Assembly (NCBI GenBank): GCA_947034885.2
Contig: OX344751.2
Span: 38,841,082-38,905,081, forward strand
Length of the DNA stretch: 64,000 nucleotides
Direction: 5' to 3'
Source: Thuidium tamariscinum
Taxonomy: Eukaryota > Streptophyta > Bryopsida > Hypnales > Thuidiaceae
Shown: positions 1 to 19,773 of the stretch, piece by piece
How the letters are laid out: each line of letters opens with the position of its first letter
Numbering within the stretch: position 1 is the stretch's first letter
The notes under the pieces: model-generated
Told to the model about the DNA's origin: nothing
Seen by the model: only the letters and a program-made list of their open reading frames with translations
Database searches by the model: none
Translations under genes and position numbers: made by a program

Positions 1-1400
1 CTTAAAATTAATTAATATGCTTCCACATATTTTCTTTTTATATTCCATATTCCCACTTTCCTAGTCACTCCAACACTTTATATTTTTTTTAATGTTACAT
101 CATATCACTCTAATTAGTCCAATACCCAAACCATTTTCATATTCAAATTACTCCACCATTCCATTTTTTTTAGGTGTGAAATTACATCATTCTAACATCC
201 AAACCATTTTCATATTCAACAACATTTTATTTCCCTCCTTATTTTTGTTTATCATTCATATCACATTAACATCCAAACCATTCCAAGTTTTTTTAATGTT
301 AGATCACATCACTGTAGCACCCAAACCATTTCCATATCCTTAGTCACTCCACCATTCCAAAAAAATTTAAAGTGTTAAATCATTTCACTCTAACACCCAA
401 ACAACTTTAATTTATTATTCCATCATTTCCTTCTAATTTCTTTTGCATCATAAGCAAAACTCTCCCATCCCAAGTCAATGCCATTTGTTTTTTGTTAAAT
501 CATTCCTTTTTCTATTTTTCTCTCCTCATTAATTAACAAAGCTTTTCTATTTTTTTCCTTCAATCCTAAAACTCTTTCATTCCAAATCATTGTCATTTTT
601 TTGGATGAATCATTCCCTTTCCCTTTTTTTTGGCTTCATTCCTAGAACTCTCCCATCTGAACTGAATGCCATTTTGTATTTGTTCCATCATTTCGTTTCC
701 TATGTTTTTTATTAATTAGCAAAGCTCTTCTTATCCCAATTCCATGCCATTCTTTTTGGTTTAGGTCATTCTCTCTCTTATTTTTTTGGCTTCATTCCTA
801 AAACTCTACCATCCCAACTCATAGTTTTTCTTTTAGTTTTTCTTGAATAATTCCATCTTCGTTTCTGTTTTGCTTCATTAATTAACAAGACTCTCCCATC
901 TTAATTCAAAGCCATTTTTCTGTAATTCCATCATTCCCTTTCCTTTTGGGGGGCCTCCTTTCTAAAACCCTTCCATCCCAATTGAAAGCAAAATGTTCAT
1001 TTTCTGTTCCATATTTTCTTTCCCTATTTTTTTGGCTTCATTCCTACAATTCTCCCATCCCAACTCATAGTTGTTATTCTCTTTTTTGTTGAATCATTCT
1101 TTTTTCTTTTTTGTTTACCGTCATTAATTAGCAGGACCACTTTATTCCAACTCATAGTTCCTCTTTATTTGTTGAATCATTCCCTTCCCTATTTTATTTT
1201 TGTAATATTTCCTAAAGTTCTTCCATCCTAAGTCAAAGCTATTATTTTTTTTGTTCCATCTTCCCTTTTCCTTTTTTTGGTTTCTCTTCATTCATAAAAT
1301 TCTTCCATTCTACTTCAATGTCATTCATTTTTTTGTTGGATCATTCATTTTCCCTTCTTTGAGGGGGCTTCATTAACTCCTAAAACATAGGCATAGTGGA
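1..1400. repeat. Decayed minisatellite, left arm beside the kinase/RING pair
   Basis: AT-rich DNA made of diverged head-to-tail units of roughly 60-130 bp. Positions 60-420 repeat a phrase like TAACACCCAAACCATTTTCAT. From about 430 to 1400 the recurring phrases are CATTCCCTTTCC, TTTTTTGGCTTCATTCCT and AACTCTCCCATCCCAACTCA. The same phrases appear in reverse complement at 6450-8490, so the two blocks form inverted arms around the kinase/RING gene pair. The left arm runs off the window. Positions 1401-1689, before the kinase stop codon, are AT-rich and show nothing recognisable. Confidence 0.7.
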
Positions 1401-1689
1401 AAAAATTAAGTGTATGCATTTTTATACCAAAGTATTGCATCCATAGTTTTCATTTACGTTTTATCATCAATTCATAGAAGTCATAAAAAATGCCATGAGG
1501 AAAGACCAATGAAAGGGCATATTAATATATTTTGGGATTTTGAGTATGGTACACAATTACACATCCGATTTAATATATATTCAAGCTGTTTGGCAATTGC
1601 CAAGTAGGTACATAGGCTCCTCTATGAAGATGATTTTCTTCTATGCCTGAAATATATGCTAAACTACAAAAAATATTAAAAACAAAATA

Positions 1690-3270
1690 CTATGTACGAT
1701 AACAACAATCCGGCATCGTCCAACAGTGGGGGGCCTTCTTCAATTTTTCTAGAACATCTGGCACTGTTGCCCTTTCACGCACATCTTCTTTTACGAGGCT
1801 TCCCAATTTGATCCTGAAATTCTGATACTGCTCTGGGTTTTTCGTTGTGAAGTATTTAGGGTCCCACTCTTCATTCCAAATTGCAGAAGCTATCCATCCC
1901 ACCGCATATGCATCAGCTGCCATAGAATACAAATGCGTTTTTTGCATGGCCTCAATGGAGTTTGATGAACCCTGCTCTCCGTATACATAAAACAATTCTG
2001 GGGCCGCAAACCTTTGCTTTTTTTTCTCCTTCGCAAGGATCTCCATACTGGGATAGCCATACCTTGATGGCTCCTTTTCCACAACTCGGCTAGAAAGTCC
2101 CCAATCACATATCCCTATGTACACCCTATTTCGTTCCCAAGGACCAAAATGGAGCAAAACATTGGATGGAGATATGTCGTTGTGCATGTACTGCGCATCA
2201 TGGCATTTCCCCACAATGTCAAGTAATGACAATGCCAATTTCACTCGATTTCTCCGATACGTTGCAACCCATGAAAGTTCCTCTTGCGTCAGCCCCGTAG
2301 AAAAATCACTCTCAATCTGATCCACATCCAGTGCTTCACTCACTTTCGCATTGCATTTGGACAAGAAAGAAATTAGAGATCCTCCATTCCACCATAGTGT
2401 GTAGCCTTCCATTGTTTTAGGGTGGAGGTACGCAATTCGAATGATGCCAGGATGATTCACTGGACACCCTCCTGCCTCATTGATGATTGCTTGGCGTTTC
2501 TCCTTTTCATTCTTAGTCTTCAAGCTCTTCCTAGCAAAAAATATCCAACTAGGAATGCTCTCAAGTTTCGTAAAGATCACCTTCCTCACGGTCCCATACG
2601 ACCCAATCGCAATTTGTTCTGGCATGGGGATGACTTTCACGGAACTTTCTAGCCACTTGAATGTTCCACTCACGCAATGAGCCGTTATCGCTTCTTCAAT
2701 TGTCACTTTCCATGGTGCTTGCTTTTTTCTACGTGAAGAAGAATATCGTTGAGCAAACGTTTGAATCTCCTTCATTTTTGTAACCATCTCTCTGTCCTCC
2801 GTGTCCCAGTCGCTACCATCTTCTTTCTTACCCGTGTGATAACACCAATTACACACTATATTGGTTGTCAAGGCGACCACTTGTTTATCCAGCCACTCTT
2901 GGTGCAACCAATAATCTGAGAAGTTGTTGAATTCTTCTGATTCTTCAAACTTTGTCTCCAGCTCCCTTCGCAGGTCCCTCGTCAGTTTGTGGTACCCTTC
3001 TTCGTCGTGAAACACATACTCCCTGTTCAACATATTTGTACTTCGACGAGTGTAGAACACTACAGCTATTTTTCTCCCTTCGACTATGAATTCATGTCCA
3101 GGTATTTGGGGATTTAGGGCTTTCTTGCGTTTTTTCTGGTTTGATGAGGAAGGATTTGATGAACCTGAGGCCATCAACGTGTTTGTACATGGAATTACCG
3201 TCTCACCAACATCATCCAAGTCTACAAAGATAGGACGTTTGTCCACCAATCCACTCCCTTCACCTGCCAT
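1690..3270 (-). CDS. Protein kinase with a novel N-terminal region, transposon-associated
   Basis: Intronless 526-residue protein. I start it at the ATG at 3270; the frame is open 21 bases further up but has no other ATG. The kinase fold covers about residues 215-510: glycine loop GSYGTV at 223-228, candidate ATP-binding lysine in ARKSLK at 248 or 251, alpha-C glutamate near 265, catalytic loop HND (363-365) followed by SPSNVLL with Asn370, metal-binding Asp389 in DWG (in place of DFG), and AAPE ending at 425. All core catalytic residues are present, so it could be an active Ser/Thr-type kinase. HND for HRD and DWG for DFG are unusual and place it outside the common plant receptor-kinase families. 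Residues 1-210 carry a basic KKRKK stretch and no domain I recognise. It is transcribed away from the RING gene from a shared promoter. Kinase is confident; role and substrate are unknown. Confidence 0.85.
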   Translation of the reverse strand: MAGEGSGLVDKRPIFVDLDDVGETVIPCTNTLMASGSSNPSSSNQKKRKKALNPQIPGHEFIVEGRKIAVVFYTRRSTNMLNREYVFHDEEGYHKLTRDLRRELETKFEESEEFNNFSDYWLHQEWLDKQVVALTTNIVCNWCYHTGKKEDGSDWDTEDREMVTKMKEIQTFAQRYSSSRRKKQAPWKVTIEEAITAHCVSGTFKWLESSVKVIPMPEQIAIGSYGTVRKVIFTKLESIPSWIFFARKSLKTKNEKEKRQAIINEAGGCPVNHPGIIRIAYLHPKTMEGYTLWWNGGSLISFLSKCNAKVSEALDVDQIESDFSTGLTQEELSWVATYRRNRVKLALSLLDIVGKCHDAQYMHNDISPSNVLLHFGPWERNRVYIGICDWGLSSRVVEKEPSRYGYPSMEILAKEKKKQRFAAPELFYVYGEQGSSNSIEAMQKTHLYSMAADAYAVGWIASAIWNEEWDPKYFTTKNPEQYQNFRIKLGSLVKEDVRERATVPDVLEKLKKAPHCWTMPDCCYRT

Positions 3271-3811
3271 AATGGAAAAAAAAAGTTCCAATGGGCCTCC
3301 GTATCAATCCCGAAGCAAGAAAGTTTCAAAAAAATTCAAAAAAACCAGGTCTCATATGCAGGCCAAGCCCAGCACCCACCAAACTCACTTGCACAGGCCG
3401 TGGGAACGAACTAGCATGTGAGGCATAGGGCGCGGACTTGGCAAAGGAATGAGGGCGGGGACTCGCTTTATATAGTCCCCCCACGCACGTCCCCGCCCCA
3501 TCCCCATCGCGTTCCTGCCCCAACACGTGGAGTTCCCGCCCTGATACACGCGTCCCCGCCCTGACGGAGACGTCCGCGCCCCGACAACGAAGGAGTCCCC
3601 GCCCTGACGGAGACGTCTGCGCCCCGACATCGATGGAGTCCCCGCCCTGCCAGCGATGGCGTCCGCGCCTTGACGTCCCCGACTGCCCCTATATAAACCC
3701 GTCCCCGCCTTGCATACTCTCAGCCTTCCACCTCTTCATTGAGTTGGTTGTGAGCTTCGTGCGGGGTCTTTTTGATTGCCACGTGGGAGGTTTTCAGATT
3801 TTCCCGTGAAA
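3271..3811. promoter_or_regulatory. Two-way promoter with GC-rich motif array
   Basis: A 541-bp spacer separates the divergent kinase and RING start codons. A minus-strand TATA box (TATATAAA) lies at 3467-3474 and a plus-strand TATATAA at 3690-3696. Between and around them GTCCGCGCCCCGAC, GTCCCCGCCCTGAC and close variants occur about ten times between 3440 and 3715. The word TGACGGAGACGTCTGCGCC at about 3606-3624 recurs exactly at about 19,585-19,603 inside the hAT right end. I infer that the array is a binding platform that controls both genes, possibly for the element's own transposase. Confidence 0.7.
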
Positions 3812-5914
3812 ATGGCTACACCGACAAGACCAAGGAAGGAGGAACGAGACAAGACCCGACCACGACCAGGAAACAAACATCGTAAGCGGTTGCATGTTTT
3901 ATGTAATCCCGCAAAGCTTGCATTCAAAGGGTGGGAAGACGTGCCTGACCCATGGACTTACGAAAACTGTGCCAATTACATCGAGTGGTGCCACATTGAC
4001 AAGGTCTTCCCAGAAAAGCGACACAACTATCACCGACGCTTCCACAGGGCAAATTTAAAACATTGCATTGATGAGGAGTTCACAAATCGGTGCATCGAAG
4101 TGTACCAGGCATTGTATGATGTCCCTATCGTCAAACGCAATGAAGTGCATCTCTTCATTGCACGAGGGGTACATGCGGAGCTAAAGTTGAACAAGAGAGT
4201 GGACTGGTCAACTTTGAAGACAATGGGGGACAAAGTCAACATTCCTACCCCAGCAAATGGATTCATTCCAAGGGGGGTAAAAAGGTACCCGCAAGGTGGA
4301 CTGGGTAAAACAACTACACAAGTTGAAGCACCACCATTACATGACACTGAGGACTCTGCTACAGATAACGACTCGGATGGATCTCATGTGCCACATGCAC
4401 TCAGCTATAGAACAAATCTACGGCTTAAAAAGAGGAGGGCTGAGCGTGCAACTGAAGAGGGTGTACAAGAAAATGTTGTGGAGGGACAGGTGCCAGCTAG
4501 TGATGAACCAACAATAGGAATTGTTGATGTTACAGCTGCTGCAGATCGAATTCAGAGTTTGAGGACTGAAGTGGAAGAGAGCAATGCGCATCTGCATTCT
4601 TTGTATGAAGATGTTAATAAATTGAGGGATGAACTCAAAGAGAAGAACAATATTATAAGTGAACAACAACGTGAGATAGAGGCGCTGCGGCATGCTCTTG
4701 AAGCAGCCACATTGGCCAATGATGGTCAGGATCCACGAGGGGGAGCGCAAGGGCCTCCAATCAATGATGAAATTCCAGTGCAACATGTTGAAGTTGGTGC
4801 AACACAGGGTACTCAAGATGATGCCCTGTCATTTGGAGAATTACCCACAAATGTAGGTCAAGCAATGCCAATTGACCAGAGCACTCAATTGACGGACGCG
4901 CTTGCAAACAATTTGATATTGAAAAAACAATTGAAAGCGTTGATGGAGCAATATTACCAGTGGAAGATGGCATGCGTCTTTTCTGTTGACAGGACTCAGC
5001 AAATGGTGTTAGAATTCCAAAAAATCGACAACAATTATGGCGCACACAATCAAGAGAGGGTTTTTGGGTTGACATCGTGGGCCCTCATGGATGATCATTT
5101 CAACATGGATGAAATGGTGACCAAAGACATTGGTGGTGGAACAACAATCATCGATTGGTCCAAACACCATTGGGATTTCAAGAATGAAGTTGGCTCTTCC
5201 CTTGACCAGAACGGCAATCCACTATTATTGTGGCCAAATCCTTCAAGCTTCGTGTATGATGGTACTACGTGTCCCATTTGTCTAAATCCATTTGGCCCTG
5301 AAGGTGGAATGCACCTAGGCACATGCGAACACTTGTACCATCCATTTTGTTTGATTAGCTTGATGGTTGTTCGTCGACGGTGTTCCTTGTGTAAGGCTCC
5401 TTTCCATGAGCGCTTGAATGATTTGTTTGGATTAGTTTCATACATGCCACCACATTGGGAATATAATGCTGAAAATGCCCCTGATCATGCTCAGAAGTGG
5501 GGAACGGACTTGGTGTGGAGTTGGAAATTGAAGGTCCATTCCTTGGATAAACAAAACCTTTCTGCCGAATGGGGTTGGGAAAAAAATCCAGCTCAAATAG
5601 TGGAGGTGTGTCAACACTTGATTCCAATGAAGGACAAGTATAGCCAAGGACGACGGAATTTCTTCTATCAGTGCTTCAATGGGCATTGGGACGAGGTTTT
5701 TGAGAACTTTCAATTTGGACCTCATCCTAAACAGTGGTTTTGGAATAGGGATGGAGTTCGTATCACTAACGACGATGGGATTCGTATGGTGGACGACATT
5801 GACATGCCTGACCCTGCTGAACTAGTTCAACTAGAGGAGTCAGAGTGGCGAGAAACCTTTCGACATGAAGGGATGGATTTCTTGCTTGAACAGCATAGCC
5901 CTCGAACTCTCTAA
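3812..5914 (+). CDS. Coiled-coil RING-finger protein, candidate E3 ubiquitin ligase
   Basis: Intronless 700-residue protein. I take the ATG at 3812 (context GAAAATGGCT); the open frame upstream has no ATG. The N-terminus (1-30) is basic. Residues 30-150 form a Trp/His/Tyr-rich region of unknown family. A long coiled coil spans about 240-303. The RING lies at 487-527, with CPIC, then TCEH, YH, FC and CSLC, giving a C3H2C3 (RING-H2) ligand order with all eight zinc ligands present. Beyond it, Trp-rich sequence runs to the end. RING-H2 proteins usually recruit E2 enzymes for ubiquitin transfer; the target here is unknown. It is divergently paired with the kinase. The frame stays open for 60 codons after the stop (see 5915-6097), so the annotated end may be a recent truncation. 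Confidence 0.85.
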   Translation: MATPTRPRKEERDKTRPRPGNKHRKRLHVLCNPAKLAFKGWEDVPDPWTYENCANYIEWCHIDKVFPEKRHNYHRRFHRANLKHCIDEEFTNRCIEVYQALYDVPIVKRNEVHLFIARGVHAELKLNKRVDWSTLKTMGDKVNIPTPANGFIPRGVKRYPQGGLGKTTTQVEAPPLHDTEDSATDNDSDGSHVPHALSYRTNLRLKKRRAERATEEGVQENVVEGQVPASDEPTIGIVDVTAAADRIQSLRTEVEESNAHLHSLYEDVNKLRDELKEKNNIISEQQREIEALRHALEAATLANDGQDPRGGAQGPPINDEIPVQHVEVGATQGTQDDALSFGELPTNVGQAMPIDQSTQLTDALANNLILKKQLKALMEQYYQWKMACVFSVDRTQQMVLEFQKIDNNYGAHNQERVFGLTSWALMDDHFNMDEMVTKDIGGGTTIIDWSKHHWDFKNEVGSSLDQNGNPLLLWPNPSSFVYDGTTCPICLNPFGPEGGMHLGTCEHLYHPFCLISLMVVRRRCSLCKAPFHERLNDLFGLVSYMPPHWEYNAENAPDHAQKWGTDLVWSWKLKVHSLDKQNLSAEWGWEKNPAQIVEVCQHLIPMKDKYSQGRRNFFYQCFNGHWDEVFENFQFGPHPKQWFWNRDGVRITNDDGIRMVDDIDMPDPAELVQLEESEWRETFRHEGMDFLLEQHSPRTL

Positions 5915-6097
5915 TGTCTTGAGAGCCTCAAACAATCACAGATCATGAGGGCTGTATTGGAGGAAGATGGACCAGCGCGGAGAACTCGATCCGCAGTTCG
6001 TAGACTACGTTTAGGCTCGGACGAAGACCTTCCCGTCATTGCAGGGACACATGACAACGAGGCTGGCCCAAGTGGCAGTGCAATGGACATAAACTAA
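5915..6097 (+). other. Open in-frame continuation after the RING stop codon
   Basis: Directly after the TAA at 5912-5914 the same frame runs without a stop to a TAA at 6095-6097. From the ATG at 5945 it reads as a 50-residue basic-then-acidic peptide (RRTRSAVRRLRLGSDEDLP, ending GSAMDIN). Its base composition is like the gene before it and unlike the AT-rich DNA after 6100. It is probably the former C-terminus of the RING protein, cut off by one base change; stop read-through or a sequencing error are alternatives. Confidence 0.5.
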
Positions 6098-6449
6098 GTG
6101 AAGTTTCTACTATCTAGCTAGTGAACTTATGTTTTCATAGAAGACTTAGGGTCCTAGCTTAATATAGGCTTATAGAATTTTGATCTCGGCAATAGATATT
6201 ATTCGTTATATTAGATATTGGCACATGCATTTTTAGATGGTGTCATGGTCATAGTAACCTCGTCATATACTTTTCCAACTATGTATTCCATGACGCTTAT
6301 GAAATATATATTATTTAGCCCAAAATCCAGGCCAAAATCACTTCGTTTTTTTTTTGCACATACTCTTTTGAAACAACATCATACATATACAAAAATTATA
6401 TCCTAAAATGAAATGTCATTGAATTGGAGTATTGTACTATGATTCATTT
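6098..6449. other. AT-rich 3' flank of the RING gene
   Basis: AT-rich sequence with no coding signal or repeat that I can recognise. It probably holds the transcript end of the RING gene. Confidence 0.4.
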
Positions 6450-8490: not shown

Positions 8491-8559
8491 CGTATTGGAG
8501 GTCTACAATTTTTTGTTTAAATCTCTACTACTTCTTTCATTTTAAACAAATTAAGTTTT

Positions 8560-9950
8560 ACCTTTGTATCTAGTACACTACATTTCCTCTATATTCCCTA
8601 AATATTTCCTCAAAATATCCGGAACATTTGCTAAATAGAAGAATTTAGACTTCTTTTTTTAAATCTAAAAATTCTTTTTAGTTCAAAGTACTAGTTTCTT
8701 CTTGGGGACACAAACAAGGTTCAAAGTAGTTCGGAGTATTAGAAGACATAAGGAACGACATGTTCCACCACAACAAAGGGTACATGCTCTTCTACGAAGT
8801 TTCTTCCAAATCTTAGTCCATTGAGCTCTTCAATTTGGCATCTTGCTTTCATGGTCTTGTCGGAATGTAGAACAAGTTGTTCTTCCTAAAATTAAAGGTT
8901 CCCCCGCTCCAAGAAAAGGAAGGATTGAAGGATCTCATGCCCAAGCGCATTTCAAAGTCCTCCCTCTTGTGCTGTATGCCCTGGCGTCCGCGCCCTGACA
9001 TCAAGTCCGCGCCCTGACGTCCGCGCCCTGACTTCAAGTCTGCGCCCTGGTGTCCGCGCCCTGACATCAAGTCCGCGCCTTGACATGAAGTCCGTGCCAC
9101 GTATTAGAATTGTCCGCCCTCAAGTCCGCGCCCTGCGTCCACGCCCTGACATAGCCAATGTCACGAAAACATTGGTGAGAGAAAGCTTTCTTGTCTCTCC
9201 ATCACTATAAAGAATCTAAAAGAAGGCATGACTGAATTTAATGGTTCCTGGTTTCCATGAAAGGAGGGACACAATCTTGTAAGAGCAATAAATAGGAGCA
9301 AGGAGGGATCCCATGCGGGAAGTCAACCTCATTTGCAGTGCATGCACGTTTGCGCACCAAGAATGGTCCGCGCCCTGACGTCCGCGCCCTCACTTGACGT
9401 CCACGCCCTGAGTAGCGCCAATGCAAGCCTCCAACTCCTTGGCTTCCCTGGTTCTCATGCCCGATCGCATTTCAAAGTCCTCCCTCTTGTGCTGTATGCC
9501 CTGGCGTCCGCGCCCTGACTTCAAGTCCGCGCCCTGGAGTCCGCGCCCTAACTTCAAGTCCGCGCCATGACCTCAAGTCCGCGCCCTGACATTAAGTCCG
9601 CGCCATGACACAGCCAATGTAACGAAAACATTGGTGAGAGAAAGCGTTCTTGTCTCTCCATCACTACAAGGAATGTAAAAGACGGCATGACTAAATTTAA
9701 TGGTTCCCGGTTTCCATGAAAAGGAGGGACACCATCTTGTAAGAGCAATAAATAGGAGCAAGGAAGGATCCCATGCGGGAGGTCAACCTCTTTTTCTTTG
9801 CATGCACGTTCGCGCACCAAGAATGGTCCGCACCCTGGAGTCCGCGCCCTGTGCTGGAGTCCACGCCTTGAAGTCCGCGCCCTCACCTGACGTCCCCGCC
9901 CTGAGTAGCGCCAATGCAGTGAAGTTCAAGCCTCCAATTCCTTGGCTTCT
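8560..9950 (+). repeat. Duplicated hAT promoter-like block with GC-motif arrays
   Basis: Positions 8560-9000 resemble 12,500-13,040 upstream of the hAT gene in the same order: a conserved tract with CAAATCTTAG, then TTGAGCTCTT, GGCATCTTGCT, TCATGGTCTT, CCCGCTCCAA and CTCATGCCCAAG. A unit of about 0.5 kb is then present twice (about 8940-9420 and 9455-9910). Both copies carry CTCCCTCTTGTGCTGTATGC, AAAACATTGGTGAGAGAAAG and AGAGCAATAAATAGGAGCAA. The copies of GTCCGCGCCCTGAC cluster at 8985-9150, 9365-9410, 9500-9610 and 9825-9905. No open reading frame in it looks real. It is either the outer 5' region of the same hAT element or a remnant of a second copy. Confidence 0.7.
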
Positions 9951-9972
9951 TGGGTTCAAAGGTTTTAGGAGT

Positions 9973-10016
9973 GTAGGGTTTAGGGTTTGGAGTATTAGGG
10001 TTTAGGGTTTGAGTTT
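9973..10016 (+). repeat. Short telomere-type repeat tract
   Basis: Two clusters of TAGGGTTTAGGGTTT occur within about 40 bp, matching the plant telomere unit TTTAGGG with short interruptions. It is an interstitial tract between the motif arrays and the satellite-like array. Confidence 0.6.
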
Positions 10017-10549
10017 GGATTGTTTGACTTTATTTCAGATGGTTTTAGGGTTGAATTAAAAAACAAATCAATGTATTCTAAACCTTCGGAAAAGAACCTA
10101 TGTCATGTTTCTGAAAAATATGTCTTCTAAGTTCATGTAAAAAAGATTTTATTGTAGCAATTATTTCTAATTGTGGATTCCATTTACAACCTTTCTACTT
10201 CAATTTAAGTTGTACGTTTTATTAAGGAAGAATCCATTGTAACAAGTATTTATAAAAATGGATTCTTTCACATTAAGAACAAAATATAACTTATAATTTT
10301 CCATTTCCCCACAAAAACCCTTGTAGTTATTATGCAGAAAAAAGAATCTTTGCTTGTGAATAATGGATCTGAAGAAATGAAACTCATTTGTTCATTTAAA
10401 AAATGCATTCTATCAATTATTCAAGAAAGTGAATCTTTTCATGTGAATCCAAAATAATGTAAAGTTCTCATTCAAAAGAAGAATCTCTTGTACCTTTTAT
10501 TTAGAAATGACTACCTTCTACGTGAATCTAAGAAACTGAACTTGGAAGT

Positions 10550-12040
10550 TTTAAAAAAATTATTTGTAACAAGCATCCACAAAAACAATTCCCTTCACGT
10601 GAATCCAAAAGAATGGAAGATCTAAGTTCTCGTTCAAAAAGAATCCCTTGTAGTTAAAATGGTCAAAAATGCATCCCCTTATAAGAATAGTGAATTCAAG
10701 AATATGATGCTCATACCTTAGGCTACACGAATTATTTGTAACAAGCATCCACAAAAACAATTCCCTTCACGTGAAGCCAAAAGAATGGAAGATCTAAGTT
10801 CTCGTTCAAAAAGAATCCCTTGTAGTTAAAATGGTCAAAAATGCATCCCCTTATAAGAATAGTGAATTCAAGAAAATGATGCTCATACCTTAGGCTACAC
10901 AAATTATTTGTAACAAGCATCCACAAAAACAATTCCCTTCACGTGAATCCAAAAGAATGGAAGATCTAAGTTCTCGTTCAAAAAGAGTCCCTTGTAGTTA
11001 AAATGGTCAAAAATGCATCCCCTTATAAGAATAGTGAATTCAAGAAAATATTATGCTCATACCTTAGGCTACACGAATTATTTGTAACAAGCATCCACAA
11101 AAACAATTCCCTTCACGTGAATCCAAAAGAATGGAAGATCTAAGTTCTCGTTCAAAAAGAATCCCTTGTAGTTAAAATGGTCAAAAATGCATCCCCTTAT
11201 AAGAATAGTGAATTCAAGAATATGATGCTCATACCTTAGGCTACACGAATTATTTGTAACAAGCATCCACAAAAACAATTCCCTTCACGTGAATCCAAAA
11301 GAATGGAAGATCTAAGTTCTCGTTCAAAAAGAATCCCTTGTAGTTAAAATGGTCAAAAATGCATCCCCTTATAAGAATAGTGAATTCAAGAAAATATTAT
11401 GCTCATACCTTAGGCTACACGAATTATTTGTAACAAGCATCCACAAAAACAATTCCCTTCACGTGAATCCAAAAGAATGGAAGATCTAAGTTCTCGTTGA
11501 AAAAGAATCCCTTGTAGTTAAAATGGTCAAAAATGCATCCCCTTATAAGAATAGTGAATTCAAGAATATGATGCTCATACCTTAGGCTACACGAATTATT
11601 TGTAACAAGCATCCACAAAAACAATTCCCTTCACGTGAATCCAAGAGAATGGAAGATCTAAGTTCTCGTTCAAAAAGAATCCCTTGTAGTTAAAATGGTC
11701 AAAAATGCATCCCCTTATAAGAATAGTGAATTCAAGAATATGATGCTCATACCTTAGGCTACACGAATTATTTGTAACAAGCATCCACAAAAACAATTCC
11801 CTTCACGTGAATCCAAGAGAATGGAAGATCTAAGTTCTCGTTCAAAAAGAATCCCTTGTAGTTAAAATGGTCAAAAATGCATCCCCTTATAAGAATAGTG
11901 AATTCAAGAATATGATGCTCATACCTTAGGCTACACGAATTATTTGTAACAAGCATCCACAAAAACAATTCCCTTCACGTGAATCCAAGAGAATGGAAGA
12001 TCTAAGTTCTCGTTAAAAAAGAATCCCTTGTAGAGTTGTA
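10550..12040. repeat. 172/174-bp tandem array, nine copies
   Basis: Nine head-to-tail copies start with ATTATTTGTAACAAGCATCC at about 10,558, 10,734, 10,906, 11,080, 11,252, 11,426, 11,598, 11,770 and 11,942; the last is truncated near 12,030. Copies differ by a few bases and by a 2-bp indel, hence 172 or 174 bp. Near-identity implies recent expansion. Older, strongly diverged units surround the array (about 10,080-10,550 and 12,040-12,380). Each copy opens a 66-codon frame on the minus strand, but 172 is not a multiple of three and nothing suggests a gene. Confidence 0.9.
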
Positions 12041-12499
12041 GTTAGAATGGTAAAAAGTGAATCCCTTCCATGTGATTGAAATAAAACAAAATAGTATTCA
12101 TTTAATGCAATGGTTTGCCACTCGTTTTAAAAACAAAAAACAAAAAACAAACAAAGCAATAGTAATTCATTAAAAAAAATCCCTTGTACGAAATATAAAC
12201 CAAAAATGAATTTGTTTACGTAAATCCAAAAGAATGTAAGATTTAATAAATCGTAAACCAGAATTGATCCCCTATAGCAATTGTTTAAAGAATTGAATGT
12301 GGTGAACATCAGTCTACAAGAATTGAATAACTTTCATTTCATAAATAATCCCTTTCAGCCAAACAATAATACTTTAAACATTCAACAAAATTGAGCATAA
12401 TTTATGAAACGTAGCCTTTACGCAAACAAAGAATTTGCTTGAGGAATGTTGAAAATGAATAACAAAATATTTTGAGTTGTTTGTTTTCATCAATACATA

Positions 12500-13662
12500 T
12501 ATTTCCCTTCAATGTTGTTTCTTTACAAAGTAAACAATGACATCTTCCAAATCAAAGAAGGGGACATGGTCTTTCAAGAAGTTCCTTTGCAATCTTTTTT
12601 TGTTGATCTCTTAATTTTGGTATCTTCTTTTTTTAAAAGAAAACAACCCTAAACCATTGCATTTATTAAACAACAAAGCCAAAGGTTTTGTATGAATGAT
12701 ACGGTTTAAGTATGTCCTATACATTTATTAAGTATTTCCTAAACATTCCTAAATCAAAGAATTTGTGTGATTTTTTTGGGAAATAAAATATTTCTTGCTT
12801 CAAAGTGGTAAAATGGTTAGGAGAACTAAGGAATGACATCTTGCAACACAAGAAACGGGACATGCACTTCCATAAATACCTTCCAAATCTTAGGCCGTTG
12901 AGCTCTTTAAGGTGGCATCTTGCTGTCATGGTCTTCTCTGAATTTAGAACAAGCTGTAATTGGTTACATTAATGGTTCTCCCGCTCCAACAAAAGGTGAA
13001 TTCAAAAATCTCATGCCCAAGTGCACTACAAATAGTGCTGGACGAGGACGTCTGCGCCCTGACTTCGAGTCCGCGCCCTGAAGTCCACGCCCTGTCTTCC
13101 TGTCCTCGCCCGGACCACTAGGGATTCAGGTGTGCATTTTGAACGTTGTCAAAGTTCACCGCCCTCAAGTCCGCGCCCTGACTCCCCGTCTCCGCCCTGA
13201 AGTCCCCGCCCTGACTTCCCGTCCCCGCCCTGACGCCAAGGATTCAGGTGTGCATTTTGGAGGTTGTCAAAGTTCACAAATTCTCCGCCCTGAAGTCCGC
13301 GCCCTGACGGCAGGGATTCAGGTGTGCATAGACTTTGGGACTGAAGTCCGCGCCCTGTTGACAAGGAGAACGGTGAAGTCCGCGCCCCTACCTTCCCCAA
13401 GTATATAAAGGAAATCCTGAACCCTGCATTCCCTACATTTGTCACCTTGGCCTCTATCTCTTGGACTTCAATTCATTTTGAGCTCCTTGTGAGTCTACTT
13501 GGGTGGCAGATTGCCCTGGTTTGCTGCTGAGGTGATGTCAAAATCAGTTCAAGCAGTGGATTAGCGCTAACTGATGTTACTGATACTTTGTCCGTTAGAT
13601 CTTCTGTCTTCTTAAATTCAACACAAAGAAGGGGAAGGCATTTCAAATTATCTGTGAATACA
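12500..13662 (+). promoter_or_regulatory. hAT transposase promoter and 5' leader
   Basis: A region related to 8560-9000 leads into a GC-motif array at 13,045-13,385 (GTCCGCGCCCTGA, GTCTCCGCCCTGAAG and variants). The array is interrupted by three copies of a GGATTCAGGTGTGCAT phrase at about 13,119, 13,242 and 13,313. A TATA box, TATATAA, lies at 13,402-13,408, followed by about 230 bases of leader before the ATG at 13,663. The layout matches the kinase/RING promoter: a dense motif array directly upstream of a TATA box. Confidence 0.7.
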
Positions 13663-16600
13663 ATGGCAAGTCAGAGGAGGCAGACCAAGGACTGGGAACC
13701 GTGGCTGAACTTCACGGAGAATGGGACTAAAGTGACTTGTGTTTTCTGTACTGGGACCTTCAGTTACAAACGTGAGCGTGCTTTTGCACATTTCGGATAT
13801 GGCGCGAAATCGGAGAGGTCAATTTGTCCAAATATGCCTCGTGAAGTGCGACATAGGTTTGCCAATTGTACAGGTTTTATCCCACTACGAGTGGATGCTG
13901 GGAACATGTGTGAAGGAGAACCAATTCAAAGTGGACCGACTAGAGCAACTCCGCTTGCAAGTTCAAGCGAAGCCACTGAAAATGAGGTGACGGATGGGGT
14001 CACTGGTGGGAGAGCGGAAGAACGGGCAAACGTTCCTGAAGGAAATGAAATTCTACAAACGTCCAATAGTCTTGCAGGTTCAAATTCTACAAGATCGGGA
14101 TCATTACGTCAGCAACGCATGGCGGACGCATTCAACATTGCAAAGAGGAAGGAGTTGGATGAGAAGTGGGCAAGTTTTTTCTATGAAGCAAATGTGCCAT
14201 TTAATGTGGCAAGGCATCCAGCCTTCATTGAGGCTATGAGGGCAACCTCAGTGGCGAGGTTTGAATATAGTCCACCTTCTTACCATCAGTTCAGGACTAA
14301 TTTAATTGAACCGAGGAGGTTGCAAATCGAGAAGAAGATTGAAGAGAAGGTTGGTTTTGCTGTCAAGCACTACGGGGTGACGATATGCACCGATGGTTGG
14401 GATGATGTCAATCGGAGGCCCCTCATGAATGTGATGATGTCATGCCCCGCAGGTGATGTATTTTTGGGGTCAATTGACACTACCTCACAAAAGAAAACCA
14501 TGCGCTATATAGCAGACCAAATGAAAGTTTACATTGAGAAGGTGGGTTCCAAATATGTGACACAAGTTTGCACAGATAATGCAGCAAACATGCTTGGGGC
14601 ATTGAGAGACATTACTGTAACCTATCCGCACATAGTTGCGCAAGGCTGCATGGCACATGCATTGGATTTGATGTTGGAAGATTGGGCCAAGATTCAGGAA
14701 TTTTCCGATTTAATTGACAGGGCAAGAAGATTGTGCCAATACATTCGAAACCATCATGCGACCATGTCGGTTTTTCGTGAGTTGAGTCCAAACCTACAAC
14801 TCGTAGTGCTTAGCAAAACTCGCTTTGCTTGTAATTTCCTCATGTTACAGCGAGTGGTGAAACTCAAAGGAGTCTTGGAGCGGTTGAATAACCACCCCCG
14901 TATTATGAATTACTATGATACCCTACGAAACGAACAGAATGGACCACAGGCAGCTACTGCTTCACATAATGTCAGAAGAACCATTGAAGATGTGGCCTTT
15001 TGGCAACGATGTGTGAATTACGTGTACATGACTGAAGACGTATTGAAGGCTTTGCGTGTGTTTGATGGACGAGAACCAGCCATGGGTCGGGCGTGGCTCG
15101 TGATGCACAACTTGCGAGGACATGTGTATTCTTTGAGAGAACCACCTTTTAGCTTACGAGATGACATAGCAGTGACTTTGGAGAGATCTTTCAATGAAAG
15201 ATGGGACATGATTTTTGAAGATACGCACTACGCCGCGGCCCTTTTGAATCTATACCTCTTGGATAACGTGGCGCTCAGGGTAGACGGAACTGCGCTACGT
15301 GCATTGTACAGAGTCATCCACAAAATGGAAGATGTAGTGGGTGTCACTTTTGATGATGTGTTGGCGGAATTAACTCAATTTGAGGAGGGTAGTGGACCGT
15401 ACAGTGCAGCTGAGACACCCAACATCCGTGTGACACAAATGCTTCCCCACCAATGGTGGCATAGGGTTGGAGATCGGGCTCTTTCAAAAATTGCCGTGCG
15501 TATTCTATCCCTCACGTGTTCGGCCAGCTCTTGTGAAAGGAATTGGAGTATGTATTCCTTTGTTCACAATAGGGTCCGAAATCGATTAGCCCCCGCGAAG
15601 GCAGAGTCATTGGTATATATTTATACTAATAGCCGTGTACTTCAGGAAAGACCAGGAGCCGATCCAGTTCGTTGGTATGATGCAAATATGTACTCGGAGG
15701 ATTCCGATCCAGATGCCCTTGGTCCGATCCCTTTGAATGAACGCAATCGGGAATTTGACGCAATGCAAGTAGAGGAAGAAGAAGAGGTTGGTGTGGAAGC
15801 CAATGAAGCACCTCAAGAGTATCCGGCGAACCCAGATCTTTGGAGGCGAGGTGCCGATCACCTCGAGGAAGCGAGAAACTACTATGGAGATGCTGACGAT
15901 GGAGAGGAAGAACCCGTTGGTGGTCGTTGGGGTCCTTGGGTACCCAATCATCGTCGCAGTCCTTCACCTCCTCTTCCTCAAAATGAAGGGGTCGCAAAAG
16001 TCCAAGCTTTGTCATCTTCTTCAGAGGCCGCCAATCCAAATGACGATGACGTAGATGATGGTATCTCCCATAACAACAACGACAATGATGACGACCTCCC
16101 TCCAGGAAATGGCGGCGGAAATGGAAATAGAAGCAATAATGGAAGTGGCAGTGAAAATGAAAATCGCGGCGGAAATGGAGATGGTGGTGGAAATGGAAAT
16201 GGTGGCGGAAACATGGGGAGGACTGCAAATCCAAATTGTGGAGGATCTTCTCACAATCAAGATGGCAATACAGGGCCTACAAAAATGGGGGCATCAGTTC
16301 GTAGCAATACAGTTGTTGAACGACACCATGACAGAAACGTTAGAAATGCAAGAATGGCACGCCCCATTGGAAGGAATCAATCGGCAAGTAATGTGAGAAG
16401 GCCTTTTGATCCAGAGCATGTAGACTACAATGATGTTTTTGCATTTATTGACGCATCAGAAGACCTTGCGCGTGAACCCACTCCAGTTCGTTCTGACCAA
16501 ACTAGCCAAGCGCCACATTCCCTAGACCCATCTTCACCAGCAACTTCCAATGCCATCCAAAGACCTTTTGAAGAAGGGTTAGGCTCTATGAGAGATGTTG

Positions 16601-17253
16601 ATATGACTCCTCAAAACATTTCTCGTGGTACTGTTGGTGGTAGACCACCTACGGCACCTCGGCCCTCCATTCATCATGAAGTGGGTCAATATCAACAAGG
16701 TCGTGGAAGGATGGGAGGCCGTGGAAGGACGGGAGGCCGTGGAAGGGCTGGAGGCCGTGGAGGGACTAGAGGTCGTGGAGGAAGAGAAGGTCCACATATT
16801 GGAGAAGCATCATCGTCAAGGCCTACTCATCGTCCACTCCTTGGAATAGAGGCAAGAGACTCAAATAGGGTGGTAGAACCGTTCTTGGATACATACGTAC
16901 CAGGACCTAGTAGGTCAACCCCAGCATTTGTTGTTCCTCGAGTTTCAAGTGGGCCCACTATAAATTCTGATGCAGAAGACCCCAACGCACTGCGACATAA
17001 GAGGTTCAAGCGCAAACGTAGTCAAGGTCAAACTATTGTAGAGCTTCGAAATGAAAACTTAGAGATTGAGGGACATTGGACCACAGATAGTGGTGAAGCA
17101 GAAGATGAATATGACAGCAACGAAGATGCCAATGACGAGGATGATCCAAACTGCGATGAGGCACCACAGGATGATGATGTTGTTGTTCGAGATGCTAATG
17201 TAGTGGATCCTAGTGGCCAAGAAGTTTGTAGGTCGAGTCGTTTCAATAACTGA
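13663..17253 (+). CDS. hAT transposase with BED finger, DUF659 and long RGG tail
   Basis: Intronless, 1,196 residues. I start it at the ATG at 13,663; the frame is open further up without another ATG. Order: a BED-type zinc finger at about 11-70 (Cys26, Cys29, His43, Cys55); a DUF659/RNase H-like core with Asp244 in TDGW, Asp305 in CTDNAAN and a CMAHALDLM motif; Glu625 in SSCERNWS; and the hAT dimerisation region to about 660. All three acidic catalytic residues are present. Typical members end soon after the dimerisation region. This one continues for about 530 residues: an acidic run (EEEEEVG, about 705), an Asn/Gly-rich stretch (about 820-855), an RGG-type repeat region (GRGRMGGRGRTGGRGRAGG, about 1015-1045) and an acidic C-terminus. 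It looks intact and so possibly autonomous. Confidence 0.93.
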   Translation: MASQRRQTKDWEPWLNFTENGTKVTCVFCTGTFSYKRERAFAHFGYGAKSERSICPNMPREVRHRFANCTGFIPLRVDAGNMCEGEPIQSGPTRATPLASSSEATENEVTDGVTGGRAEERANVPEGNEILQTSNSLAGSNSTRSGSLRQQRMADAFNIAKRKELDEKWASFFYEANVPFNVARHPAFIEAMRATSVARFEYSPPSYHQFRTNLIEPRRLQIEKKIEEKVGFAVKHYGVTICTDGWDDVNRRPLMNVMMSCPAGDVFLGSIDTTSQKKTMRYIADQMKVYIEKVGSKYVTQVCTDNAANMLGALRDITVTYPHIVAQGCMAHALDLMLEDWAKIQEFSDLIDRARRLCQYIRNHHATMSVFRELSPNLQLVVLSKTRFACNFLMLQRVVKLKGVLERLNNHPRIMNYYDTLRNEQNGPQAATASHNVRRTIEDVAFWQRCVNYVYMTEDVLKALRVFDGREPAMGRAWLVMHNLRGHVYSLREPPFSLRDDIAVTLERSFNERWDMIFEDTHYAAALLNLYLLDNVALRVDGTALRALYRVIHKMEDVVGVTFDDVLAELTQFEEGSGPYSAAETPNIRVTQMLPHQWWHRVGDRALSKIAVRILSLTCSASSCERNWSMYSFVHNRVRNRLAPAKAESLVYIYTNSRVLQERPGADPVRWYDANMYSEDSDPDALGPIPLNERNREFDAMQVEEEEEVGVEANEAPQEYPANPDLWRRGADHLEEARNYYGDADDGEEEPVGGRWGPWVPNHRRSPSPPLPQNEGVAKVQALSSSSEAANPNDDDVDDGISHNNNDNDDDLPPGNGGGNGNRSNNGSGSENENRGGNGDGGGNGNGGGNMGRTANPNCGGSSHNQDGNTGPTKMGASVRSNTVVERHHDRNVRNARMARPIGRNQSASNVRRPFDPEHVDYNDVFAFIDASEDLAREPTPVRSDQTSQAPHSLDPSSPATSNAIQRPFEEGLGSMRDVDMTPQNISRGTVGGRPPTAPRPSIHHEVGQYQQGRGRMGGRGRTGGRGRAGGRGGTRGRGGREGPHIGEASSSRPTHRPLLGIEARDSNRVVEPFLDTYVPGPSRSTPAFVVPRVSSGPTINSDAEDPNALRHKRFKRKRSQGQTIVELRNENLEIEGHWTTDSGEAEDEYDSNEDANDEDDPNCDEAPQDDDVVVRDANVVDPSGQEVCRSSRFNN

Positions 17254-17644
17254 GTTGCACCAATGGTAGATCTCGTGTCTTTAAGAGTTGAAGATAATTG
17301 TAGCAATTAAAAGAAAGATGGACAAGAAGCCAAAGGAATGTCTTTTCCCTAACCGATGAGAAAGTGGGCATATTTTGGAAGTATAGATTCATTGTATTGT
17401 TATTGTACTTTGCAAATTGCAATGCATGAATTTTATAAATACTTTTGGTTATCATAAAGATTGAAGCCTACTAATATGTCTATAATGTTTTTGTATTTGA
17501 CATTTTGACATGCATATTGGAAACATTGGTGAGTGCAATCATGTAATATATTTTGTAGGCTAATTCTATTTAATATGAGAGGCACTTTGACTTCAATGAT
17601 GAATTGGGTTTGATAGTTGAATTTAATTTCAAGGTTTGTGATGT

Positions 17645-19092
17645 GGCTATTTTATTTTGTACAATGGGGTACCATTGTACAAAAAAAGTCTTTTTCGAAT
17701 TTGCAGTGAGAATTTTTTTGGTATGGCCAACTTTGAAAGCCTCCCGAGAGCTCAAAAAGTAGTATTTAACCACAAAATTTTTACCACAACATAAAATTGA
17801 AGTTAATTATATATATGACAAATTTCAAGGCCAAAAGATTTAGGAAAGAGAAGTTATTCAAAATCTACCAAGATGGGTAGTAGTGAGAAACATTTCACTA
17901 CTTTCAACTTTGACACCTTTTTAAGGAGTAAGGATTGAGTCTTGGTTCTTTTGCCGTGAAATTTTTGTCATGGAATAATCTCTATGTTCTTAATATGTAT
18001 AAAAAATTTCAAGGTAAAAAAAGGTTTGGTGAAGAAGATATTTGAAATCTCTCAACAGGTGTAGTTCTCTGAAACTTTTGACAATTACCAATTTTGACAC
18101 CCTACCAAGGGCTAAAAAATAAGTTTCTTACCATGAATTTTTTTTGGTGAAGTCATCTCTATATTCATAATATATGCTACAAGTTTCAAGTTAAAATGAA
18201 CTACCCAAAAAAAGATATACAAAATCTGACAAGATGTGTGGTTATGAGAATTTTTTTACTATTGCCAACTTTGACACCCTCCCAAGGGCTGAAAATTTGT
18301 CTATTTAACATGGAATTATTTGAATAAAATCAACTTTATGTTGATGTTCCAAATTTCAAGTTCAAAACACATACCCCAAAAAAGATATTCAAAATCTCTC
18401 AACATGTGTAGTTGTGAGGTTGAGTTTCTACATTCGTGACAAACTTGGCTCCACAAAATAATACTATACTAAGGACTCAAGAACTTAATCTCATAACCAC
18501 ACATGTTGTGAGATTTTGTATATCTTTTTTTTGGTAATTCATTTTAACTTGAAATTTCTAGCATATATTACGAACATAGAGATAAATGCAGCCAAAAAGA
18601 ATTCATGGTAAGAAACTTATTTTTTAGCCCTTGGTAGGGTGTCAAAATTGGTAATTGTCAAAAGTTTCAGAGAACTACACCTGTTGAGAGATTTCAAATA
18701 TCTTCTTCACCAAACCTTTTTTTACCTTGAAATTTTTTATACATATTAAGAACATAGAGATTATTCCATGACAAAAATTTCACGGCAAAAGAACCAAGAC
18801 TCAATCCTTACTCCTTAAAAAGGTGTCAAAGTTGAAAGTAGTGAAATGTTTCTCACCACTACCAATCTTGATAGATTTTGAATAACTTTCCTTTCCTAAA
18901 TCTTTTGGCCTTGAAATTTGTCATACATATAACTAACTTCAAGGTTAAGCTGTGGTAAAAATTTTGTGGTTAAATACTACTTTTTGAGCTCTCGGGAGGC
19001 TTTCAAAGTTGGCCATACCAAAAAAATTCTCACTGTGAATTCGAAAAAGACTTTTTTTTTATTGGTACCCCATTGTACAAAATAAAATAACC
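17645..19092. repeat. 1.45-kb inverted repeat (giant hairpin) made of ~175-bp units
   Basis: The left arm, about 17,645-18,250, is the reverse complement of the right arm, about 18,489-19,092, with good but imperfect identity; a spacer of about 240 bp lies between. Outer edges read GGCTATTTTATTTTGTACAA and its mirror. Each arm is itself built of diverged direct units of about 175-180 bp carrying phrases like TTTGACACCCTCCCAAGGGC, TTTCAAGG and ATCTCTATGTTC; four or more units are visible from 17,705 to 18,420. Transcription would give a long double-stranded RNA. It sits between the transposase gene and the right-end arrays. Confidence 0.9.
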
Positions 19093-19429
19093 AATTGAAA
19101 ATTTTGCATGCTAAGCCTTATTACTACTTTTACTTTCCAAGGTTATTTCAAATAATTTAGATTGATTTTTCTATTTGTACTCATTTACATTCATTTTTTG
19201 CACCAAAAATTATAACAATTAGAAAATTGGTACAAAACAAACTGTAATTTCTCATGGTGATATAGAATTAAGAGTTTGAATTAGAATAAATTTCAGATTG
19301 TTGTTTGAACACTACCCATACTCAAAAGGCTAAAATTAGTTCACATAAGAAGTTTGACCACTTCACAATTGACAAAGTCCTTAAGGGGTTACGGACCTTC
19401 TACCCTATAGAACCCATAACTCACTAACC

Positions 19430-19620
19430 GTCCGCGCCCTGACCCTTATGTTGAGGTCCGCGCCCTAACACTAACGGTGAAGTCCGCGCCCTACCTATAC
19501 GCGTCCGCGCCCTGACTTACACGCTGAAGTCCGCGCCCTACTTGTTCGAGTCCGCGCCCTGACGCTAACGGTGAAGTCCGCGCCCTGACGGAGACGTCTG
19601 CGCCCTGGATCTCGCTTTCT
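19430..19620 (+). repeat. GC-motif array near the hAT right end
   Basis: About nine copies of GTCCGCGCCCTGAC or close variants, spaced 20-35 bp, in otherwise AT-rich DNA. Spacers such as TAACGGTGAAG recur. The array contains the 19-base word shared exactly with the kinase/RING promoter. Subterminal clusters of short words are the usual binding sites of hAT transposases. Confidence 0.8.
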
Positions 19621-19664
19621 AAGCTGATGTGTCAACCCAAAAAAATCCCACTACTTTGAAAAAT

Positions 19665-19765
19665 GGAGCCGTCCGGTACGTCCGGACATGTCCATCCGTC
19701 CGGTCCGCCTCGCCCGTCCGTCCGGGACGTCCGGTGACCCTGACTCGTCCGTTATGACAACCCTG
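19665..19765 (-). mobile_element. hAT right terminus with GTCCG subterminal repeats
   Basis: About 100 bp rich in GTCCG/CGGAC words, with around ten occurrences, ending GTTATGACAACCCTG. Read inward from the end this is CAGGGTTGTCATAAC, a hAT-type terminal inverted repeat. The array shares the GTCCG core with the longer GC motif. Bases 19,766-19,773 (CTTTTACT) are the expected 8-bp target site. Confidence 0.75.
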
Positions 19766-19773
19766 CTTTTACT

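What the first reader, a model, noticed from the sequence alone, without database searches (positions are those of the whole stretch)
1..19765. Candidate giant hAT element carrying a kinase and a RING protein
Three intact-looking intronless genes (kinase, RING protein, hAT transposase) share one GC-rich motif in their promoters, and the same motif is clustered inside a hAT right terminus at 19,765. An exact 19-base word, TGACGGAGACGTCTGCGCC, is common to the kinase/RING promoter and the right-end array. Ordinary hAT elements are a few kb and carry only a transposase; a kinase plus RING-H2 cargo would be a new arrangement to my knowledge. No left terminus is visible, so nested elements with a shared motif remain possible.
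Basis: partly seen in the sequence, partly recalled or inferred. Interest (0 to 1): 0.87.

Follow-up and report, generated by a model that had tools for sequence, protein, structure and literature searches.

The report
Giant hAT transposons carrying kinase and RING
The window holds almost all of a 20-kb jumping gene of the hAT type, from a plant that is probably a moss, which carries a protein kinase gene and a RING-finger gene as fixed parts beside its transposase; relatives up to 37 kb long sit at many places in the same genome, whereas well-studied hAT elements are small and carry only a transposase.

Summary
The window copy is one 19,997-bp hAT element, C3:38,840,850-38,860,846. Its left end (CAAGGTTGTCATACC after CTTTTACT) starts 232 bp left of the window; the same 8-bp duplication CTTTTACT follows the right end at 19,765. 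Four complete copies (17.2-23.8 kb) at four loci each have a perfect 8-bp target duplication. Of 39 listed hAT loci of this family, 34 have both RING and kinase upstream in the same layout; none has RING in a wrong orientation. The trio recurs in a second family (16,969 bp, TSD TGACACAG), a third (36,774 bp, TSD AAAGCGGC) and, by fixed spacing, a fourth whose ends were not read. Proteins of families 1-3 are only 27-45% identical, so the trio is old. Each of families 1-3 has its own short motif, clustered at both ends and upstream of the genes (weakest in family 2). Best reading: an autonomous multi-gene hAT lineage whose ends and promoters share a site read by a co-evolving element protein; kinase and RING are probable helper or anti-silencing factors (inferred). 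I found no earlier description in 10 searches of an open-access library.

The parts
1..19765 (+). Part of the giant hAT element that lies in the window; the element is 19,997 bp (G000:C3:38840850-38860846), its first 232 bp (left end CAAGGTTGTCATACC, preceded by TSD CTTTTACT) lie just left of window base 1
1690..3270 (-). Protein kinase gene, 526 aa, one open frame; K248, E265, N364, N370, D389-W-G invariant and H363, D365 in at least 90% of a 26-sequence alignment
3812..5914 (+). RING-H2-type protein gene, 700 aa, stop about 60 residues before the C-terminus shared by relatives
3425..3673 (.). Family-1 motif array in the divergent kinase/RING promoter, with TATA-like hexamers on both sides
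8986..9904 (+). Large internal array of the same motif (possible relic of an older promoter, similar to the hAT upstream region by eye)
10558..12033 (+). Tandem array, 172-bp unit, 8.6 copies, inside the element
   Evidence: aligns in several registers in other copies
13050..13390 (+). Motif array upstream of the hAT gene, 5' of a TATA-like hexamer
13663..17253 (+). hAT transposase gene, 1196 aa (DUF659, Dimer_Tnp_hAT)
17678..19061 (.). Palindrome with 470-bp arms (97% complementary, 444-nt spacer) between hAT gene and right end
19430..19608 (+). Right subterminal motif array
19748..19765 (-). Right terminal inverted repeat (reads CAGGGTTGTCATAACGGA inward)
19766..19773 (.). 8-bp target-site duplication CTTTTACT, right copy (left copy directly precedes the left end, outside the window)

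Best explanation
The finding is one member of a lineage of giant, multi-gene hAT transposons. SHOWN: the element is bounded by short inverted repeats (CAGGG...) and 8-bp target duplications, encodes a hAT transposase with DUF659 and dimerisation domains, and carries a kinase and a RING gene in a fixed layout in dozens of copies; the trio occurs in at least four families. SHOWN: each of families 1-3 has its own short GC-rich motif, clustered at both ends and upstream of the element's genes, often 5' of a TATA-like hexamer. INFERRED: the transposase moves the whole 17-37 kb unit by cut-and-paste, and an element-encoded protein (most likely the transposase N-terminus, possibly the shared N-domain of the RING protein) binds the motif, so that the same site serves end recognition and control of the element's own genes. 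INFERRED, weaker: kinase and RING are helpers of transposition, most likely by phosphorylating and ubiquitinating either the transposase or a host silencing factor, rather than genes useful to the plant.
For: Boundaries and TSDs: Wn CTTTTACT, C4 CTCCACAC, C3b GACATTGC, C6 ACCACATG; family 2 TGACACAG; family 3 AAAGCGGC. That is 6 of 6 elements for which both ends were read; a seventh, C8, has lost its right end to another insertion. Layout family 1: 36 of 39 listed hAT loci have RING upstream on the same strand within 60 kb, 35 the kinase within 70 kb, 34 both, 0 with RING in a wrong orientation; 40 of 44 RING loci have a divergent kinase within 10 kb. Family 3: 35 of 43 hAT loci have RING upstream on the same strand within 80 kb, 0.2 expected at random; 21 of 22 listed kinase loci have hAT downstream within 60 kb. 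Family 4: 13 of 13 RING loci have the kinase at 8.5-9.1 kb, and 5 of 5 hAT loci have the kinase at 10.7-11.0 kb. Motif, family 1: 38, 41, 33 and 50 copies inside four elements, 0 outside. Family 3: 42 inside, 39 of them in ends and upstream of all five genes, 0 in 8.2 kb of flank. No motif of one family was found in the fetched element of another, except two family-3 matches inside the family-2 element. Family 2: all four motif clusters at <=2 mismatches are at ends or upstream of genes. Selection: pairwise dN/dS of RING 0.33-0.46 and of kinase 0.53-0.77 over 10 pairs each; catalytic kinase residues kept at about 30% identity.
Against: No transposition, transcription, binding or enzyme activity was measured. 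Among the five fetched family-1 copies none has all three genes at full length. hAT dN/dS is above 1 in 3 of 10 pairs (1.11-1.34), which fits decay or alignment trouble in the repetitive tail. The left 400 bp of C3b has no motif at <=1 mismatch. The family-2 motif is loose: at <=2 mismatches it has 44 matches inside and 10 in 23 kb of flank, and at <=1 mismatch 0 upstream of RING, 1 upstream of kinase and 1 in the flank. The family-3 motif has 1 match in each of the fetched flanks of families 1 and 2; the family-1 motif has 7 in the family-2 flank, where a family-1 relic lies. Eight of 43 family-3 hAT loci show no RING within 80 kb upstream, and one of these has a RING in a wrong place. 5 of 39 family-1 hAT loci lack one or both partners in the lists. 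Limits of family 4 were not read, and 2 of its 5 hAT loci have no listed RING. Only one element of families 2 and 3 each was read base by base. 19 of 38 family-1 motif copies in the window element lie outside the ends and promoters tested, in the internal 9-kb array. No control was run for the TATA-like hexamers.
Confidence: 0.8

Rival explanations
1. Nested elements: a kinase/RING element and an ordinary hAT element that happen to lie side by side and share a GC-rich motif.
For: No left terminus was visible in the window; nesting does occur elsewhere in this genome (the family-2 element lies in a roughly 52-kb interruption of a family-1 hAT gene at C2; C8 is cut by another hAT end).
Against: Four complete copies with the same order between one pair of ends with 8-bp TSDs; 34 of 39 hAT loci have both genes in one orientation; the trio also in families 2-4.
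Confidence: 0.01
2. Kinase and RING are passive passengers: host genes captured once by an ancestor and carried along without helping the element.
For: Many copies are broken; no activity is known; other DNA transposons are known to capture host genes (recalled).
Against: Both genes persist in four families; the hAT proteins of families 1-3 are only 42-45% identical; dN/dS below 1 for RING and kinase; both genes carry the element's own motif upstream; 44 of 78 family-4 kinase matches have no stop in the matched N-terminal part.
Confidence: 0.15
3. The shared motif is a binding site for a host transcription factor (or a relic of array amplification), not for an element protein.
For: In 8 of 11 genes motif copies lie 5' of a TATA-like hexamer, as enhancer arrays would; the arrays are GC-rich and vary in copy number between copies.
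Against: The motif differs between families in one genome and is nearly confined to its own family in the fetched regions; it is mirror-imaged at the two ends of family 1, as expected for end recognition; Ac transposase binds such subterminal repeats (PMC3260210, passages).
Confidence: 0.3

Closest known systems
Maize Ac/Ds (hAT superfamily); passages of PMC3260210 seen
   Same: Short TIRs, 8-bp TSD, a hAT transposase, and short repeats within the terminal 200 bp that the Ac transposase binds.
   Different: Ac is 4.6 kb with a single transcript that encodes the transposase. Here 17-37 kb, three to five genes, and the terminal motif repeated upstream of the other genes.
VANDAL21 and VANC anti-silencing proteins (Mutator-like, recalled); PMC5735166, passages seen
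   Same: A DNA transposon with extra genes; a family-specific short motif in dense arrays in non-coding parts that changes together with the element's protein.
   Different: Not hAT; VANC is not known to me as a kinase or RING protein. VANC similarity was not sought here, and no methylation was measured.
ToxhAT of fungal wheat pathogens; PMC6737239 (passages) and PMC12506042 (passages)
   Same: A large (about 14 kb) DNA transposon with several genes, named for a hAT-like transposase gene next to ToxA.
   Different: Single copy, 74-bp TIRs, and a later paper finds a TA duplication and says it was misclassified (Tc1/mariner-like). Here dozens of copies, with 8-bp TSDs in those read, and a fixed kinase/RING pair.
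Starship giant transposons of fungi (listing and abstract starts)
   Same: Giant transposons with several genes.
   Different: Starships use a tyrosine recombinase (recalled) and carry diverse cargo; here a hAT transposase and constant gene content.

Membership tests
hAT superfamily | 8-bp target-site duplication | tested here: met
   6 of 6 elements with both ends read
hAT superfamily | short terminal inverted repeats | tested here: met
   CAGGGTTGTCATA.. at both ends in family 1 (one mismatch at the left end of the window copy); CAGGGTTG.. in family 2; CAGGGTTTTCT.. in family 3
hAT superfamily | hAT transposase with C-terminal dimerisation domain | tested here: met
   PF05699 and PF04937 above cut-off in families 1, 2 and 3
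hAT superfamily | intact catalytic acidic triad | not tested
   no alignment to a characterised hAT transposase was made
VANDAL-type anti-silencing element | family-specific motif in dense arrays in non-coding parts | tested here: met
VANDAL-type anti-silencing element | Mutator-like transposase | tested here: not met
   Pfam gives hAT domains in families 1-3
VANDAL-type anti-silencing element | VANC-family protein | not tested
   no comparison with VANC was made; Pfam scans show kinase and RING domains, and no family for the two RING-N paralogs
VANDAL-type anti-silencing element | loss of DNA methylation at motif arrays | not testable with these tools
   needs methylation data
RING-H2 E3 ligase | eight metal ligands of the RING-H2 pattern | tested here: met
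   C487, C490, C505, C524 invariant; H510, C513, C527 in >=90% of 23 rows; the eighth ligand H507 is present in the window copy but replaced (for example by C) in some relatives. Pfam scores are below the curated cut-offs. Ligase activity untested
active protein kinase | catalytic K, E, HxD, N and DxG residues | tested here: met
   K248, E265, N364, N370, D389, W390, G391 invariant and H363, D365 in >=90% of 26 rows; kinase fold in the model. Activity untested

The most novel reading that the evidence does not exclude
A previously undescribed class of autonomous hAT transposons that encode their own signalling pair: an element kinase marks a target protein and an element RING ligase removes it, disabling host silencing (or timing the transposase). 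All element genes and both ends are wired to one family-specific site that co-evolves with an element DNA-binding protein. This would be the hAT counterpart of the VANC anti-silencing system.
Probability: 0.35. Interest if true: 0.93.

Novelty: new variant of a known kind. Interest (0 to 1): 0.84.

Why it matters
Well-studied hAT elements such as the 4.6-kb Ac encode a transposase and little else. Here 17-37 kb hAT elements carry a fixed kinase/RING pair in four families in one genome, with one site shared by ends and promoters that differs between the three families read. It gives a directly testable case of a eukaryotic transposon with its own phosphorylation and ubiquitin enzymes, and a possible independent parallel to motif-guided anti-silencing. 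It also warns that such kinase and RING genes may be annotated as host genes.

Tried and rejected
Rejected: nested elements. Rejected: a left terminus inside the window. Viral contigs: 2 scans, 4 and 13 pattern stretches, no relative of RING or kinase. Prokaryote genome contigs: 30 stretches, no relative of the kinase alignment. RING model was poor (mean pLDDT 62) and Foldseek gave no hit at E<=0.001 in PDB, so the N-terminal domain stays unexplained. Kinase profile: no PDB sequence at E<=1e-5; Foldseek finds kinases in general and does not place it in a subfamily. Paper searches gave nothing on point: 10 searches; the library holds open-licence PubMed Central papers only. Empty-site search with joined flanks of the C4 copy did not complete.

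Rows dropped before counts. One search used 53 of 72 rows (16 family-3 rows and 3 diverged rows at 56-71% left out), 58 of 84 rows (22 family-3 and 4 other rows left out) and all 41 rows; rows on one strand less than 6 kb apart were merged into loci. One search used the 22 family-3 kinase rows, 8 RING loci (each made of two matched pieces) and 43 of 48 rows. One search used 41 family-3 and 13 family-4 rows and 43 plus 5 rows. One search used the 78 family-4 rows of the 124. Genome searches score only the best candidates (64 of 1319, 82 of 630, 39 of 864, 48 of 735, 54 of 1326, 124 of 582), so counts are lower bounds and an absent partner may only be unscored.
Full report
Where the window lies. 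The window is C3:38,841,082-38,905,081 of a 363-Mb genome in 19 contigs. The transposase has its nearest named eukaryotic relative in the moss Ceratodon purpureus (42% identity over 48% of the query); that the host is a moss is an inference.

Observation. All three genes are present as single open frames: a kinase at 1690-3270 (-), a RING protein at 3812-5914 (+) and a hAT transposase at 13663-17253 (+). The exact 19-base word is at 3605 and 19586 with none expected by chance. The wider motif has 50 matches in the window, all in 3425-19608, against 0.21 expected. One correction: the RING frame stops about 60 residues before the C-terminus of its relatives.

The element. The 19-base word occurs 7 times in the genome. 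The 3-kb loci around these held kinase/RING at four places and right ends at three. Forty-kilobase regions around the five places outside the window, and 30 kb left of the window, were fetched. Five loci carry kinase, RING and hAT in the same order, at 92.6-100% protein identity to the window copy. Pairwise alignment runs from one end to the other apart from internal insertions and deletions. Exact ends were read in four copies. The window copy is 19,997 bp with TSD CTTTTACT; C4 is 17,190 bp with CTCCACAC; C3b is 23,831 bp with GACATTGC; C6 is 17,679 bp with ACCACATG. In all four the 8 bases on the left equal the 8 on the right. The fifth, C8, has a left end but its right end is replaced by the terminus of another element.

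The trio is the rule in this genome. RING, kinase and transposase were each searched against the whole genome (capped lists). Of 39 family-1 hAT loci, 36 have the RING gene upstream on the same strand, 35 the kinase on the opposite strand, 34 both, and none has RING in a wrong orientation. Of 44 RING loci, 40 have a divergent kinase within 10 kb, mostly 510-690 bp away. One of the hAT loci counted as lacking the partners, C8:16,523,997, has RING and kinase on the same chromosome about 68-70 kb upstream, beyond the cut-off used (rows). Seven of the 44 RING loci have no listed hAT within 60 kb (my count from those rows).

Diverged families. At C2 a separate element of 16,969 bp with TSD TGACACAG lies in a roughly 52-kb interruption of a family-1 hAT gene (pieces). 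It holds a 787-aa RING gene, a 553-aa kinase and a 1044-aa hAT transposase, all open. A third family was read at C1:6,390,094-6,426,867: 36,774 bp with TSD AAAGCGGC. It has an 832-aa RING protein, two proteins of 496 and 463 aa that share only the RING protein's N-terminal part, a kinase broken into two frames, and a 947-aa hAT transposase. Thirty-five of 43 family-3 hAT loci have RING upstream on the same strand within 80 kb, 21 of the 35 at 28.4-29.5 kb and the rest at 24.3-66 kb, where random placement gives 0.2 loci. Twenty-one of 22 family-3 kinase loci have the hAT gene downstream. A fourth family shows up as 5 hAT loci at 67% identity to family 3, 13 RING loci at 71-72% and 78 kinase loci at 67-71%. 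All 13 RING loci have the kinase at 8.5-9.1 kb and all 5 hAT loci have it at 10.7-11.0 kb; 3 of the 5 hAT loci have RING at 20.6-20.8 kb and 2 have none listed. Ends of family 4 were not read. Between families 1, 2 and 3 the proteins are 27-37% (RING), 30-31% (kinase) and 42-45% (hAT) identical, so the association is old.

A shared site that differs between families. Family 1 uses TCCGCGCCCTGA: 38, 41, 33 and 50 copies (<=1 mismatch) inside the four complete elements and none in 74, 23, 16 and 22 kb of flank. In shuffles that keep local composition (300 per zone) none reached the observed count in any of the five zones of the window copy. Copies at the left end of the window element are in the opposite orientation to those at the right end. 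Family 3 uses GCAGTCGCCC: 42 copies inside, 39 of them in the two ends and the 900 bp upstream of all five genes, 0 in 8.2 kb of flank. Family 2 uses GGACGGCCTGG, loosely: at <=2 mismatches 44 inside, every cluster at an end or upstream of RING, kinase or hAT, and 10 in 23 kb of flank; at <=1 mismatch RING has none upstream and kinase one. Inside the fetched elements families do not share motifs, but for 2 family-3 matches in the family-2 element; in flanks there is 1 family-3 match beside each of families 1 and 2, and 7 family-1 matches beside family 2, where a family-1 relic lies. In 8 of 11 genes a TATA-like hexamer lies 122-261 bp before the start codon with motif copies 5' of it. The array of family-3 RING-N1 straddles one at -368, family-3 RING-N2 has one only at -753, and the family-3 kinase has none in 900 bp (no shuffled control).

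The proteins. The kinase alignment of 26 sequences keeps K248, E265, N364, N370 and D389-W-G in all rows and H363 and D365 in at least 90%. Its model has a kinase fold behind an extra helical N-terminal domain (mean pLDDT 80.5; Foldseek matches are general kinases). The RING protein has a RING-H2-type finger in a long protein with long helices (probable coiled coil) and a conserved N-terminal domain with no known match. Relatives of RING (21) lie on contigs of at most 4.9 kb and relatives of the kinase (28), but for one on 27 kb, on contigs of at most 7.2 kb, in a database of 5.8 billion proteins; only one kinase relative bears an organism name, a 'Bacilli bacterium' bin, probably contamination. 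Pairwise dN/dS between family-1 copies is 0.33-0.46 for RING, 0.53-0.77 for kinase, and 0.45-0.57 for hAT in 7 of 10 pairs but 1.11-1.34 in three.

How it most likely works. Shown: mobility signature, gene content, layout, motif placement. Inferred from established hAT biology: cut-and-paste by the transposase, as for Ac, whose transposase binds subterminal repeats (PMC3260210, passages). [quoted passage not shown] Kinase and RING as helpers against host control is the weakest step. The alternative that they are passengers is less likely because both persist in four diverged families, and in the three that were read they carry the element's own motif upstream.

What is known. ToxhAT, the obvious precedent for a large multi-gene hAT, has 74-bp TIRs (PMC6737239, passages) and was later found to have a TA duplication and judged misclassified (PMC12506042, passages). 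A survey of plant hAT elements defines them by TIRs of at least 8 bp and 4-8 bp TSDs and found none in Physcomitrella (PMC6027215, passages). No description of a kinase/RING hAT was found in 10 library searches; Repbase, most preprints and most subscription journals were not searched.

Noticed in passing
G000:C1:6390094-6426867 (L031-L035): Family-3 element of 36,774 bp with three genes sharing the RING N-terminal domain, two of them without a RING finger; the N-domain probably has a job of its own.
   Followed up: partly
G000:C8, oriented region 29290 onward (L028, L027): The right end of the C8 family-1 copy is cut by another CAGGGTTGTTCTG terminus with GGGCGACCTCGGGTA repeats, similar in start to family 3; possibly a further family.
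   Followed up: partly
G000:C11:729129-737264 and C5:29559447-29563220: Diverged RING/kinase pairs (RING 58 and 71%, kinase 62 and 68-71% to family 1) that suggest older or further families; left out of the counts.
   Followed up: no
window 17678-19061: Large palindrome (470-bp arms, 97%) between hAT gene and right end; the C6 copy lacks its right arm in the alignment. A possible hairpin RNA source.
   Followed up: partly
window 10558-12033: 172-bp tandem array of 8.6 copies inside the element; it aligns in several registers in other copies.
   Followed up: partly
window 431-1146 and 6938-8460: AT-rich stretches on either side of the kinase/RING pair hold ten short inverted matches of 31-70 nt at 70-84%; they may be old inverted repeats of the pair or shared low complexity.
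   Followed up: partly
P0023, P0085: Kinase and hAT relatives credited to a 'Bacilli bacterium' metagenome bin; probably plant DNA binned wrongly.
   Followed up: no
window 42532-43146 and 46812-47411 (-): A 201-bp tandem array (3 copies), and a Lys/Glu-repeat ORF of 199 aa with only weak Pfam matches.
   Followed up: no
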